Assembly: GCA_001804785.1 (NCBI GenBank)
Contig: MHBG01000111.1
Span: 1-64,000, forward strand
Reading direction: 5' to 3'
Length of the DNA stretch: 64,000 nucleotides
Origin: Lentisphaerae bacterium GWF2_45_14
GTDB taxonomy: Bacteria; Verrucomicrobiota; Lentisphaeria; Victivallales; GWF2-45-14
Positions 59,441-63,992 of this stretch are shown here, in pieces. Within the stretch, counting starts at the first letter, position 1, and the number at the start of each line of letters is the position of its first letter. The notes under the pieces were generated by a model that saw only the letters and a program-made list of their open reading frames with translations, ran no database searches and was not told the origin of the DNA. The translations under genes were made by a program, and so were the position numbers.

Positions 59441-60619
59441 ATGAGTTTTCTGGGTTATATCAAACGGTACGAAAATGAACTGTTTAACAACGTAATACCC
59501 TTCTGGGAAAAAAACTGCGAAGATAAAAAATACGGCGGCTATTTCAGCTTCCTTAATAAGGACGGATCTGCCTACGACAGCGAAAAATTTATGTGGATGC
59601 AGTGGCGGATTGTCTATATGTTTGCCATTCTTTACCGCGCGTCCGAAAAGAAAAATGAAAACTGGCTCAGAATAGCAAAGCAGGGTTTCGATTTTCTCGA
59701 AAAAAATGGCAAAGACCAGGAAGGGTTCTACTACTTCGCCATTAACAGACAAGGGCAGCCATCTGTTGCCCCGTACAGCATTTATTCGGACTGTTTCGCG
59801 GCGATGGGGGCAGCGGCTCTTTATCACGCGACGGGCGATGAAAAATACCGCACCGAGGCAAACCACTCCATGAAAAATTACATCAGCCGCATGCACAACC
59901 CTAAAGGCAGATGGGAAAAAGGGCTTTCGGGCAGACCAGCCAGGCTCAACCTAGGCCACTTTATGATTCTTGCCAACCTCGGACACGTAATGAAGGAGTG
60001 TCTCGGAACAAATATATATGACGCCGATACGGCAAACGCGGTAGGGACAGTGATGGAGAAATTCTGGCACCCGGAATTCCGCATCCTTTTTGAGAATGTC
60101 AACACGGATGCCTCATTCGATCTTGAATCATGCGACGGCCGCCATGTCAATCCCGGACACGGTCTCGAGTCAATGTGGTTTGTACTCCAATACGCCGAAA
60201 AGGAAAACGATAAAAAGCTTATAGCAAAGGCCAGTGATTACATATCCGGCCTTCTTGATTTCGGCTGGGACAAAACTTTTGGCGGCATCTATTATTTTAT
60301 GGATGTCCTCGGCAAACCCCATGTCGAACTTCAGGCGGATATGAAACTCTGGTGGCCTCACAATGAAGCTTGTATCGCCGTGCTTTATGCGTACAAGCTT
60401 ACTAAAGACGACAAGTTCCTCGAATGGTTCAAAAGGCTCGACGAATGGAGTTTCTCGAATTTTCCCGACAGGGAATGCGGCGAGTGGTTTGCCTACCTTC
60501 ACAGGGACGGACGTCCCGCCAATATGCTGAAAGGCGGTAAATGGAAAACATTTTTTCATCTGCCGCGTTTCCTGCTTGTATCGTTAAAACTTATGAAGGA
60601 AATAGAAGAGGCTGAATGA
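59441..60619 (+). CDS. AGE-family sugar 2-epimerase
   Basis: The 392-residue protein is an N-acylglucosamine 2-epimerase-type enzyme with an (alpha/alpha)6 barrel. Features are YGGYFSFLNKDGSAYDSEKF, WMQWRIVYMFAILYR, HVNPGHGLESMWFV with the conserved His, and VELQADMKLWWPHNEACIA. Members epimerise N-acetylglucosamine, cellobiose or mannose at C2; which one applies here cannot be told. AAGGAGG precedes the ATG. It heads an operon with the LacI-type regulator, with which it overlaps by 4 nt. Confidence 0.92.
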   Translation: MSFLGYIKRYENELFNNVIPFWEKNCEDKKYGGYFSFLNKDGSAYDSEKFMWMQWRIVYMFAILYRASEKKNENWLRIAKQGFDFLEKNGKDQEGFYYFAINRQGQPSVAPYSIYSDCFAAMGAAALYHATGDEKYRTEANHSMKNYISRMHNPKGRWEKGLSGRPARLNLGHFMILANLGHVMKECLGTNIYDADTANAVGTVMEKFWHPEFRILFENVNTDASFDLESCDGRHVNPGHGLESMWFVLQYAEKENDKKLIAKASDYISGLLDFGWDKTFGGIYYFMDVLGKPHVELQADMKLWWPHNEACIAVLYAYKLTKDDKFLEWFKRLDEWSFSNFPDRECGEWFAYLHRDGRPANMLKGGKWKTFFHLPRFLLVSLKLMKEIEEAE

Positions 60620-61590
60620 GTAAAACACTTACATTACAAGACATTGCGGACAAGGCAGGCATATCACTGACTACCGCCTCCATGTACATCAACGGAAAGG
60701 CCGGGAAATATAATATTTCTAAGGCCACCTGCGAGCGCATCGCGAACGTAATAGCGGAAAATAACTATAATCCGAATATTCACGCACGAGCGATAGCAGG
60801 AAAGAAAACATACCTCATCGGAGTAATCATCGCGGGCGGAATCGATAGTTCGTTCTGGCTCGACATTGTGGCAGGAATCGAGGAAAAAATAACCCCATGC
60901 AACTACCATATGATCCTTTCTGTCTCGCATTACGACGTGGAAACCGAGCGAAAAGCAATCGAATTCATGAATTCCAAGGGCGTTGACGGTTTCATCTACA
61001 GCCCGGCCATGCCGGATGCGAATTTTGATATAATCGAAAAACTTAAAAAGAAAAAGCCCTTCGTTAGTATTACTCTTCCTATTCCTGGAATTCCATCGGT
61101 CTATAATGACAATGCTGCCGGCGGCGAGGCTGCCGCAAAATGCCTTTTCGATAACGGACACCGCAAAATAGCCTACATCGGACAACTTAAAAACTGGGGT
61201 GACCCGCGAGGGGTATCTTTTGTTAAAATACTTAAAAATAAAGGAGTTAGCGTGACGGTTTTTTCCGATGTGAATTCCTTCATGCCAAAGGTCAGGGACT
61301 TTACCGCGGTATTCTGTTTTTCGGACTATCAGGTACTCGATCTTTATAACGAAGCCGCGAAAATCGGCATAAAAATACCTGACGATCTTTCAGTCATAGG
61401 CTACGACAATATGAGTTTTATCCAGTATCTTTCACCGCGCCCTGCCACGATCCATCAGTATAAAAAAGAACTCGGCAGCGAAGCCGCGGATATCATGATG
61501 GCCCGCCTTGAAAAAAATGAAATCCTTAAAGATAAAGTCTTTACGCCAAAGCTTATCGAAAGTTCAAGCATAAGGAGATGGTATGAATAG
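60616..61590 (+). CDS. LacI-family transcriptional regulator
   Basis: The 324-residue protein has the LacI helix-turn-helix at the N-terminus (TLQDIADKAGISLTTASMYI), the hinge region and a sugar-binding periplasmic-type domain (YLIGVIIAGGIDSSFWLDIV, DDLSVIGYDNM, ATIHQYKKELG). It overlaps the epimerase stop (ATGA). It probably represses its own operon through the palindrome at 59414-59429 and responds to the epimerase substrate or product. An IS110 element follows its stop by about 9 nt. Confidence 0.94.
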   Translation: MSKTLTLQDIADKAGISLTTASMYINGKAGKYNISKATCERIANVIAENNYNPNIHARAIAGKKTYLIGVIIAGGIDSSFWLDIVAGIEEKITPCNYHMILSVSHYDVETERKAIEFMNSKGVDGFIYSPAMPDANFDIIEKLKKKKPFVSITLPIPGIPSVYNDNAAGGEAAAKCLFDNGHRKIAYIGQLKNWGDPRGVSFVKILKNKGVSVTVFSDVNSFMPKVRDFTAVFCFSDYQVLDLYNEAAKIGIKIPDDLSVIGYDNMSFIQYLSPRPATIHQYKKELGSEAADIMMARLEKNEILKDKVFTPKLIESSSIRRWYE

Positions 61591-61651
61591 TTAGTGAGAT
61601 TTCGGAGCTTGTTCTTGAAACTGTTGTAAATTATAGAAACATCAGTTCAGG

Positions 61652-61815
61652 AGCAGACGGGATACAGGCTGCATTTTTATGTGGGTACGTGATTCGAGAA
61701 TCATGGAACCCGAAAAGGAGATTAGCGTCAGACCTGTTTCCGAAGCGCCACCGTAAAGACGGCAGAAGCCGGACTTTGTATAGGAGAATGTTTGGCCCGA
61801 AATAGCACGTCTGCT
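61652..61815 (+). ncRNA. candidate bridge RNA of the IS110 element
   Basis: AGCAGACG (61652-61659) pairs with CGTCTGCT (61808-61815) and closes the domain. Inside, ACAGGCTG (61664-61671) pairs with CAG-A-CCTGT (61729-61737). This leaves an internal loop of 11 nt (61672-61682) and 17 nt (61712-61728) below an apical stem (GGGT/ACCC, TGATTC/GAATCA), which resembles a target-binding loop. The second half (61738-61807) carries the two segments matching the element's right and left ends, as expected of a donor-binding loop. A separate 6-bp GAAA-tetraloop hairpin (61817-61832) follows before the transposase. Bridge RNAs lie 5' of the transposase in IS110-group elements. Confidence 0.7.
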
Positions 61816-61842
61816 TCGATCTGAAAAGATCGGAGAGAAAAA

Positions 61843-62868
61843 ATGAAGAAGTCAAAAAGGTATCTGGGCGTGGACTTGCACAGGACGCAGTTCACGGTGT
61901 GCGAAAGGAACGAAAAGGGCGAAGAAAAATTATGTCGTTATCACATCAAGGAACTGGAAGAGTTCGCTTCTAAACTGGACCGGAATGTTGAAATTGCGGT
62001 TGAAGCGACAGGGAACACGAAATTCTTCTGTGATGTGGTAAAAAAGAAAGCCGGAAAACTTGTAGTTATAAATCCGCATCAGTTTAAAGTGATAAGTAAA
62101 TCGGTAAAAAAGACTGATGAAAACGATGCAAAAACAATAGCACTGTTTCTCGAAAAGGACATGCTGCCGGAGATAAGGATGAAAGACGATCTGCACGCGA
62201 AAATATCGAGTCTGGTACAGACAAGGGAGAAGCTTGTCCGGCTCCGTACCGCGCTCAAGAACAAGATCAATAACATCTTTTCTTCCAACATGATGCCGCT
62301 TGAAAAAGAAAGCATGAGCAGCGAAAAAGGATTGAGAAAAATACTTTCCGCGACCTTTGATCCGATAACCGATGTGGAACTCCGGGTAATGGTTTCTGAG
62401 ATCCGGAATCTCAATAACAGTATCAAAGAACTTGACGACGCCATCGCCGAGAACGGGAATAAACTTGAAGGGCATAAAAACCTCACCAGCATCAAAGGAA
62501 TAGGAGACAAAGGTTCGGCAATACTTCTTTCCGTAATCGGCAACGTTCATGACTTCAGCAATAAGAACAAACTTGCCGCATATTTCGGAATAGTTCCACG
62601 GGTGAGCAATTCGAATGAGACAGTTCATCATGGAAGAATCACAAAAAATGGGAGCAAAATAGGACGTTCGACACTTGTCCAATGTTCCTTGATTGCGAAA
62701 CGCTATTGCAAACCGTTACGCGATTATCATGAGAGGATAAAAAGCCGACGCGGAGGCGGTAAAGTAAATATCGCGCTGGCTCGCAAGTTCCTGGACATCA
62801 TTTACTATACGCTTAAAAACGATAAAGTGTTCGAAGACTTCCCGACTTTCAAACTGGTGGAGTCTTGA
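61843..62868 (+). CDS. IS110-family transposase (DEDD recombinase)
   Basis: The 341-residue protein has the RuvC-like DEDD domain: Asp11 in YLGVDLHRTQ, Glu54 in AVEATGN, and Asp92 and Asp95 in KKTDENDAKT. A coiled-coil middle follows. The C-terminal Tnp domain has SIKGIGDKGSAILLSVIG, AYFGIVPRVSNS and the catalytic Ser candidate 271 in ITKNGSKIGRS. It should catalyse RNA-guided recombination together with the bridge RNA. GGAGAG lies 5 nt before the ATG. The gene appears intact. Confidence 0.95.
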   Translation: MKKSKRYLGVDLHRTQFTVCERNEKGEEKLCRYHIKELEEFASKLDRNVEIAVEATGNTKFFCDVVKKKAGKLVVINPHQFKVISKSVKKTDENDAKTIALFLEKDMLPEIRMKDDLHAKISSLVQTREKLVRLRTALKNKINNIFSSNMMPLEKESMSSEKGLRKILSATFDPITDVELRVMVSEIRNLNNSIKELDDAIAENGNKLEGHKNLTSIKGIGDKGSAILLSVIGNVHDFSNKNKLAAYFGIVPRVSNSNETVHHGRITKNGSKIGRSTLVQCSLIAKRYCKPLRDYHERIKSRRGGGKVNIALARKFLDIIYYTLKNDKVFEDFPTFKLVES

Positions 62869-62927
62869 TATAAAAACGTTAAAATTTTTCAGAACGAAGT
62901 AGAAAACTATCATAGGAGAATGATATT

Positions 62928-63992
62928 ATGAGCAGTAGAAAGAGAATAAATGACGCATTCGTGCATAGGAAGCCGGACAGGACGCCGGTCTTTGAGTATG
63001 TTTTAAACTCTGATGAAATTACAAAGCGTATTCTTGGAAGACCTGTGTCTTATTTGCACTGGGAGGAATGCGTAAAGGAAAAAGGATGGGAAAAAGCCCT
63101 CAGGCAATATGCAATCGACAGACTCGATATAGCCGAATTTTTCGGGCATGACATGCTTTATCAGGTACGAAGTCCAGTTCCGCCCCGAAAAGAAAAAACT
63201 ATCGAAGAAAAGCAGCCAGAAACTGACGACCCTGTCGAAAAATTGGAAAGAAGGAATAGGCTGAAACGCGAATTCCGAATAGAAATTGCTTCGGAATCGA
63301 TGATCATATATGATTTTCTGAAAGAAGAAATGCTACGACGGAATATTGATCTGCCAATCCTGGCTCCCGCATATTGCCATGGAGTCTGGACGGATATTGA
63401 TCTTATGCAGGTAATGCTGCTTGCTCCGGAGCTTGCCCATGAACACTTTTCACTGGCTTCTGAAACGGCTATACGCCTTATAGATGAATACCTTAAACAT
63501 GGCATTGACCTATTCGGAATAGGCGGCGATTTTGCTGGGAACTCCCCTCTTATTTCACCGGAAAGCTACAGGACTTTCATAATGCCGGAACTGAAAAAAC
63601 TTTCCAATAAAGTTCACGCATCCGGGAAACTCGCAATAAATGCAAGCGACGGAAATCTGTGGAGCGTGATCGACGATTTTCTCATCGAGTCAGAGGTCGA
63701 CGGTTATCTTGAAATAGATCTTCATGCAGGAATGGAATTGAAAAAACTTAAACAGTCATATGGCGAACGGATAACCTTTCTCGGCAATCTGGACTGCGGA
63801 AATACTTTAAGCTTCGCATCGCCGGAAAAAATCCGGGATTCTGTTATCAAGTGCCTTGAAGACGGGACTGGAAACGGAGGGCATATTCTTACGGCAAGCA
63901 ACGCGATAACGGAAAGTGTTCCGCCGGAAAACTATATAGCTGTGACAAATGCTTACAGGGAATATTTTTCACTTGAGAAAATTAAATTATAA
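62928..63992 (+). CDS. UroD-family (uroporphyrinogen decarboxylase-like) protein
   Basis: The 354-residue protein has the UroD/MtaA barrel pattern: RINDAFVHRKPDRTPVFEY at the N-terminus, DLFGIGGDFAGNSPLISPES, HASGKLAINASDGN and ITFLGNLDCGNTLSFASPE. True UroD makes haem precursors, but this branch, common beside sugar genes in PVC bacteria, is more like corrinoid-dependent methyltransferases. The HASG segment lacks the Cys of the zinc site of MtaA-type enzymes, so neither activity is assured. Its ribosome site AGGAG (62914-62918) lies in the right end of the IS element. AAGGAG at the window edge suggests another gene follows. Confidence 0.87.
   Translation: MSSRKRINDAFVHRKPDRTPVFEYVLNSDEITKRILGRPVSYLHWEECVKEKGWEKALRQYAIDRLDIAEFFGHDMLYQVRSPVPPRKEKTIEEKQPETDDPVEKLERRNRLKREFRIEIASESMIIYDFLKEEMLRRNIDLPILAPAYCHGVWTDIDLMQVMLLAPELAHEHFSLASETAIRLIDEYLKHGIDLFGIGGDFAGNSPLISPESYRTFIMPELKKLSNKVHASGKLAINASDGNLWSVIDDFLIESEVDGYLEIDLHAGMELKKLKQSYGERITFLGNLDCGNTLSFASPEKIRDSVIKCLEDGTGNGGHILTASNAITESVPPENYIAVTNAYREYFSLEKIKL

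What the first reader, a model, noticed from the sequence alone, without database searches (positions are those of the whole stretch)
61591..62927. Complete IS110 element with a bridge-RNA-like region whose donor guides match the element's own ends
The 5' non-coding end forms a closed domain (8-bp outer stem 61652-61659/61808-61815) with a two-hairpin plan. Segment 61780-61790 (ATAGGAGAATG) is identical over 11 nt to 62912-62922 at the right end, and CCGAAAT (61797-61803) is complementary to ATTTCGG (61599-61605) at the left end. In described IS110-group bridge RNAs, the donor loop carries a guide in the sense of the right end and one complementary to the left end, as found here. GAT at both ends would hold the core. 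A chance 11-nt match between such short regions is unlikely (about 0.4 percent by simple counting).
Basis: partly seen in the sequence, partly recalled or inferred. Interest (0 to 1): 0.88.

Follow-up and report, generated by a model that had tools for sequence, protein, structure and literature searches.

The report
Transposon guided to ribosome-binding sites
This is a small jumping gene whose RNA guide spells out the bacterial ribosome-binding sequence, so it and its relatives in several bacterial phyla insert into the ribosome-binding site in front of genes and rebuild that site at their far end.

Summary
Copies in relatives, including a multi-copy Victivallales genome with exact empty sites, show that every member inserts into an AGGAG Shine-Dalgarno (SD) sequence. 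The window element runs 61576-62916 (1341 bp, core GG), not 61591-62927 with core GAT. It splits the SD of the downstream gene (ATG 62928) and rebuilds an SD (CATAGGAG-N9-ATG) at its right end.

Of 71 independent right junctions, 65 have an ATG 3-12 nt downstream. The target guide (AAAGGAG, 61714-61720) covaries with each element's own insertion site (permutation p<5e-5), and the donor guide (ATAGGAG, 61780-61786) matches its own right end. Subterminal inverted repeats with 7-bp and 3-bp outer extensions mark it as IS1111-type, although its non-coding RNA lies upstream of the transposase as in IS110. The same guide is kept in relatives from Lentisphaerota, Planctomycetota, Acidobacteriota, KSB1, Alphaproteobacteria and Spirochaetota.

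SD targeting is known for IS900, in the opposite orientation, so this is a new variant of a known kind.

The parts
61576..62916 (+). whole element (1341 bp, one GG core counted at the right end); left core GG 61574-61575, right core GG 62915-62916
   Evidence: boundaries fixed by 18 full copies and empty sites in G011 and about 35 relatives; crossover placed in GG by L033 (base before GG differs) and L077 (base after GG differs)
61572..61577 (+). left half of the interrupted Shine-Dalgarno target (AAGGAG; AAGG from host, AG from element)
   Evidence: same motif at every left junction
62912..62930 (+). right junction: ATAGG (element) + AGAATGATATT + ATG, a rebuilt SD in front of the URO-D-like gene
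61843..62868 (+). transposase/recombinase, 341 aa; D11, E54, D92, D95 and S257 intact
   Evidence: IS621 equivalents D11/E60/D102/D105/S241 from PMC11208158
61576..61582 (+). 7-bp left terminal extension AGATGGT outside the subterminal inverted repeat
   Evidence: 7 bp is the IS1111 value (PMC11187229)
61583..61591 (+). left subterminal inverted repeat (ATGAATAGT, imperfect in this copy)
62906..62913 (+). right subterminal inverted repeat (ACTATCAT), followed by the 3-bp extension AGG 62914-62916
61582..61587 (+). putative -10 box (TATGAA, preceded by TGG) of a promoter formed in the circle; putative -35 at 62900-62905 (TAGAAA), spacer 17
   Evidence: sequence; better -35 matches in relatives (TGGACA in Rhodobacteraceae, TTGACT in spirochaetes); inference
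61650..61817 (+). guide-RNA domain closed by a 10-bp stem 61650-61659/61808-61817
61714..61720 (+). left target guide AAAGGAG (Shine-Dalgarno sense)
   Evidence: covariation with the insertion site at -2 (32/35 vs 23.6) and -3 (23/32 vs 11.7), p<5e-5
61683..61711 (+). hairpin of the target module (GGGT 61683-61686 / ACCC 61708-61711)
   Evidence: helix 4, all 4 pairs with compensatory changes
61780..61786 (+). left donor guide ATAGGAG, matches the element's own right end 62912-62918
61755..61777 (+). hairpin of the donor module (AAAG/CTTT)
   Evidence: helix 5, 100% paired with 3 of 4 pairs compensated
61749..61754 (+). candidate right donor guide CACCGT, pairs with ATGGT 61578-61582
   Evidence: sequence; compensatory changes in spirochaete members; weak outside them
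61594..61605 (+). leader strand (GTGAGATTTCGG) complementary to 61797-61808 (CCGAAATAGCAC); forms instead of the closing stem in the long RNA

Best explanation
This is an RNA-guided DEDD insertion sequence of IS1111 type with its guide RNA encoded upstream of the transposase. The guide RNA's target loop reads (N)AAGGAG, so the transposase-RNA complex inserts a circular form of the element into Shine-Dalgarno sequences, exchanging strands at the GG of AGGAG. The donor loop (ATAGGAG) recognises the element's own right end, and probably a short segment before the donor hairpin recognises the first bases of the left end. Because donor and target share GGAG, insertion leaves no extra duplication and rebuilds a Shine-Dalgarno sequence in front of the target gene. 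The element always ends up sense to the host gene and downstream of its promoter, which probably helps transcribe the guide RNA and transposase. Shown by sequence: ends, target, guide-target and guide-end matching, RNA fold, sTIRs. Inferred: RNA expression, circle formation, recombination, and the benefit to element and host.
For: Eighteen full copies in G011 (17 independent sites) all sit in AGGAG, 15 in AAAGGAG, the exact guide; this is 20/125 among other AGGAG-ATG sites there, Fisher p=5e-9. Three uninterrupted copies of one target locus give an exact empty site, CACAAAAGGAG|ACATCAGCCATG. Over the family 65 of 71 independent right junctions have ATG 3-12 nt after GGAG, against 23-54% for AGGAG, AAGGAG or AAAGGAG sites in 392 kb of G011. 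The target guide covaries with host flanks that are not inherited with the element, e.g. ACAGGAG in L054, CAAGGAG in L060, TAAGGAG in L055, TGAAGGAG in L091, AAGGGG in L077. Donor guide and right end covary. RNA domain. sTIRs: own ends match better than permuted ends, 7.4 vs 5.5 nt, none of 10,000 permutations as high, with 7/3-bp extensions.
Against: No expression, circle or transposition data. The element is single-copy in its own assembly apart from a 43-bp lone right end, so this copy may be inactive. The right target guide could not be found by covariation. The right donor guide is convincing only in spirochaetes. No uninterrupted ortholog of the window's own site was found. Part of the bias to true start sites may be selection against insertions inside genes.
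Confidence: 0.86

Rival explanations
1. One reading: an IS621-like IS110 element spanning 61591-62927 with core GAT, whose donor loop carries ATAGGAGAATG and CCGAAAT as left and right donor guides.
For: Both sequence matches are literally present.
Against: All other copies have their left end at AGGAG|ATGGTATG; AATG of the match is host flank; GAT is not conserved; ATTTCGG is about 24 bp inside the end, whereas IS621's right donor guide pairs next to the core (PMC11208158).
Confidence: 0.04
2. SD insertion is a survivorship effect: the element inserts at many AGGAG-like places and only insertions outside coding sequence persist.
For: In G011, 16/17 insertions lie before an ATG, more than the 20/37 of AAAGGAG sites in sampled G011 DNA (p=0.003); a few insertions without a nearby start codon survive (L048, L094).
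Against: Selection cannot explain that each element's own guide matches its own site at -2 and -3, nor 15/17 AAAGGAG. It may add to guide-directed targeting.
Confidence: 0.1
3. The LE leader/DBL complementarity (ATTTCGG/CCGAAAT) is a long right donor guide pairing with the DNA of the left end, not an RNA helix.
For: Complementarity is conserved across clades (own pairs score 21.0 vs 17.65 permuted).
Against: It lies 17-32 nt from the core, at the predicted transcript start; it is part of the minimum-energy fold of the leader RNA in 25/35 elements against 33% with shuffled leaders; a core-proximal candidate guide exists.
Confidence: 0.2

Closest known systems
IS1111-type insertion sequences (ISEc11, ISKpn4, ISPa11) with seekRNA
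   Same: DEDD transposase of 330-350 aa, subterminal inverted repeats with 7-bp left and 3-bp right extensions, no target duplication, apparent order of the guide for the top strand before the guide for the bottom strand
   Different: non-coding RNA upstream of the transposase instead of downstream; sTIR 8-10 bp rather than 11-13; target is the Shine-Dalgarno sequence
IS621 / IS110-type bridge RNA systems
   Different: core GG not CT; left guide lies 3' of the loop hairpin instead of 5'; sTIRs present; about 70 bits to IS621/ISCro4, C-terminal half only
IS900 of Mycobacterium avium subsp. paratuberculosis
   Same: IS110-family element that targets translation initiation signals: motif CATGNNNNNNTCTCCTT = reverse complement of AAGGAGANNNNNNCATG (PMC8141618; Doran 1997 cited there)
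   Different: opposite orientation to the target gene, carries hed on the other strand, different host phylum; its guide was not examined here

Membership tests
IS110/IS1111 superfamily (DEDD RNA-guided transposases) | Transposase with DEDD_Tnp_IS110 and Transposase_20 domains and conserved D, E, D, D, S | tested here: met
IS110/IS1111 superfamily (DEDD RNA-guided transposases) | Long non-coding region encoding a structured guide RNA with target and donor matches | tested here: met
   structure; guides; RNA itself not observed
IS110/IS1111 superfamily (DEDD RNA-guided transposases) | Circular intermediate with abutted ends and a junction promoter | not testable with these tools
   promoter-like boxes across the junction only
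IS1111 group | Subterminal inverted repeats with 7-bp left and 3-bp right extensions | tested here: met
   exact 7/3 in G011, most acidobacterial and spirochaete members; imperfect repeat in the window copy; repeat shorter than the usual 11-13 bp
IS1111 group | Non-coding region downstream of tnp (usual) | tested here: not met
   upstream in all members; exceptions are on record (PMC11187229)
IS1111 group | Transposase groups with IS1111 proteins in a tree | not tested
IS110 group (IS621-like) | Left guide 5' and right guide 3' of the loop hairpin | tested here: not met
   left guides lie 3' of the hairpins
IS900-like SD-targeting elements | Insertion into SD plus start codon context | tested here: met
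IS900-like SD-targeting elements | Opposite orientation to the target gene with hed ORF | tested here: not met
   element is sense to the gene at all junctions with a start codon

The most novel reading that the evidence does not exclude
The family's guide RNA has two mutually exclusive folds. In the long transcript its 5' leader pairs with the donor-loop flank while a 5' hairpin hides one strand of the closing stem; after the leader is removed the closing stem forms. Leader removal or transcript start would then switch the RNA between states, for example donor-blocked and active.
Probability: 0.25. Interest if true: 0.72.

Novelty: new variant of a known kind. Interest (0 to 1): 0.62.

Why it matters
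Guides of IS110/IS1111 elements are thought to drift to many different sites. Here a guide stays on one sequence, the Shine-Dalgarno motif, across several phyla and down to about 33% transposase identity. That motif is the least host-specific site a bacterial genome offers, it occurs in front of many genes, and it is sense to transcription. If right, it shows how an RNA-guided transposon can settle on a near-universal, low-cost site, and it offers a natural guide that inserts DNA at gene starts while restoring the ribosome-binding site. It also supplies many natural guide-target pairs and a sTIR-bearing element with an upstream guide RNA, which bears on how the IS110 and IS1111 types are related.

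Tried and rejected
Rfam scan of the region: nothing above gathering score. First genome-contig scan with the single protein found no relatives; the alignment query did. Covariation scan for a right target guide gave no signal above z=2.9 in 1342 tests, and hand-picked RTG candidates had inconsistent offsets, so none is claimed. The scan for right donor guide columns is confounded by clade structure. A conserved mini-ORF after the left SD (ATG AAT AGT TAG) was considered; planctomycete members have ACG instead of ATG, so it is more simply the -10 box. The G001 ortholog of the downstream gene has a different upstream context, so it gave no empty site for the window. Further genome searches in Rhodobacteraceae gave no new members at E<=1e-80, the other two only one and two. 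One alignment with wrong coordinates was discarded.

Full report
The finding is a complete insertion sequence carrying a transposase of the IS110 superfamily (61843-62868) and a 5' non-coding region. Relatives fix the ends and change the story.

Ends and target. In genome G011, of the same order, 18 full copies 62% identical in protein lie at 17 independent sites. Every copy starts right after AGGAG with AG|ATGGTATGATAAATAAC and ends ...TTTATCATGGGAG, followed within 4-10 nt by ATG in 16 of 17. One target locus is present uninterrupted elsewhere in the same genome: AACATCACAAAAGGAG|ACATCAGCCATG, against the filled site AACATCACAAAAGGAG|ATGGTATG...TTTATCATGGGAG|ACATCAGCCATG. The insertion is exact, with only GGAG shared. 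The same pattern holds in relatives from Victivallales/Lentisphaerota, Planctomycetota, Acidobacteriota, KSB1, Rhodobacteraceae, Sphingobium and Spirochaetota. Over 71 independent right junctions, 65 have ATG 3-12 nt after GGAG (67 with GTG or TTG), while in 392 kb of G011 only 23% of AGGAG, 33% of AAGGAG and 54% of AAAGGAG sites do. So the target is the Shine-Dalgarno sequence.

In the window the left junction is AAGG|AGATGGTATGAATAG (61572-) and the right junction is ATCATAGG|AGAATGATATTATG (-62930). The element is 61576-62916. Joining the flanks gives AAGCATAAGG|AGAATGATATTATGAGC. On that reading the LacI-type gene upstream (60616-61590) would have overlapped the start of the URO-D-like gene (62928); insertion split their SD and replaced the last codons of the regulator. 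This pre-insertion state is inferred; no uninterrupted ortholog was found.

Core. In G011 the base before GG is A at the left junction (host) and G at the right junction (element). In L077 the base after GG is A at the left junction (element) and G at the right junction, as its guide AAGGGG predicts for the host site. The crossover therefore lies in GG.

Guides. The RNA has two similar modules, each a hairpin followed by a guide: AAAGGAG (61714-61720) and ATAGGAG (61780-61786). The first equals the target. Across 35 elements its bases at -2 and -3 match the element's own host flank in 32/35 and 23/32 cases against 23.6 and 11.7 for permuted flanks (none of 20,000 permutations as high). Host flanks are not inherited with the element, so this is strong evidence for guidance. 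The second matches the element's own right end, including the A/G change next to the core in G011 and L100 (30/30, p=0.002). In G011, 15 of 17 sites are AAAGGAG, the exact guide, against 20 of 125 AGGAG-ATG sites sampled (p=5e-9). The right target guide was not found. For the right donor guide, spirochaete members show CAUUC/GAATG, CGUGC/GCACG and CAUAC/GTATG just before the donor hairpin; the window has ACCGU/ATGGT. This order is reversed relative to IS621 and like IS1111 seekRNAs (PMC11187229, PMC11208158).

RNA fold. On a 26-sequence alignment 89% of cells pair, 16 of 23 pairs have compensatory changes, and sliding the partners destroys the signal. The window domain folds with z=-3.3. With the leader from 61593 the minimum-energy fold changes (z=-5.9): ATTTCGG pairs with CCGAAAT and a 5' hairpin captures the closing strand. 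Leader-to-donor-flank complementarity is above permuted pairs over the family, although the window's own pair is not individually outstanding (43rd percentile). It appears in 25 of 35 predicted folds against 33% with shuffled leaders (p=5e-6). The leader begins about where a transcript from a junction promoter (-35 in the right end, 17-nt spacer, -10 in the left end) would start. A two-state RNA is possible but untested.

Class. Subterminal inverted repeats of 8-10 bp with 7-bp left and 3-bp right extensions are present in most members, which is the IS1111 hallmark. The guide RNA lies upstream of the transposase, as in IS110. I file it as IS1111-like within the IS110 superfamily. A labelled transposase tree was not made.

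Known and new. IS900 targets the same SD-start-codon motif in the opposite orientation (PMC8141618), so SD targeting by this superfamily is known. The searches of open-access papers found no bridge- or seek-RNA account of it; subscription papers were not covered. New here are the guide-level evidence, the sense orientation, the regeneration of the SD, the persistence of one guide across phyla, and the possible leader switch.

Noticed in passing
L002 79-121 (G000:C87): A lone 43-bp right end of the same element (98% identical) sits 6 nt before the ATG of an ISL3-like transposase ORF that has an early stop; the sequence before it is a dispersed repeat, so this looks like a remnant of a second insertion into an SD.
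   Followed up: partly
L040, L050 and empty copies L178, L181, L184: In G011 the element has inserted into the SD of another multi-copy IS110-like transposase gene (9 copies); uninterrupted copies give the exact empty site.
   Followed up: yes
L077 right junction and guide: Natural reprogramming: the target guide reads AAGGGG and the right junction reads GGGG while the left junction keeps GGAG.
   Followed up: partly
L104 2600-2666: Two right-end sequences (TTGACTTTTTATAGGAG) in tandem 29 bp apart, as if a second copy had inserted into the rebuilt SD and then been lost.
   Followed up: no
window 61560-61590: The last codons of the LacI-type regulator (...RRWYE*) are read from the element; in the inferred pre-insertion site the gene would end ...RRMIL* overlapping the next start codon.
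   Followed up: partly
L073 (contig JAFYHA010000031.1): A 67% identical member lies on a 3.2-kb contig of a MAG labelled Clostridia; binning error or recent transfer.
   Followed up: no
L107-L119 (Marispirochaeta JC231): Twelve copies of a 33% identical relative in one draft genome, many at contig ends; the six right flanks that could be read all lead into SD-ATG.
   Followed up: partly
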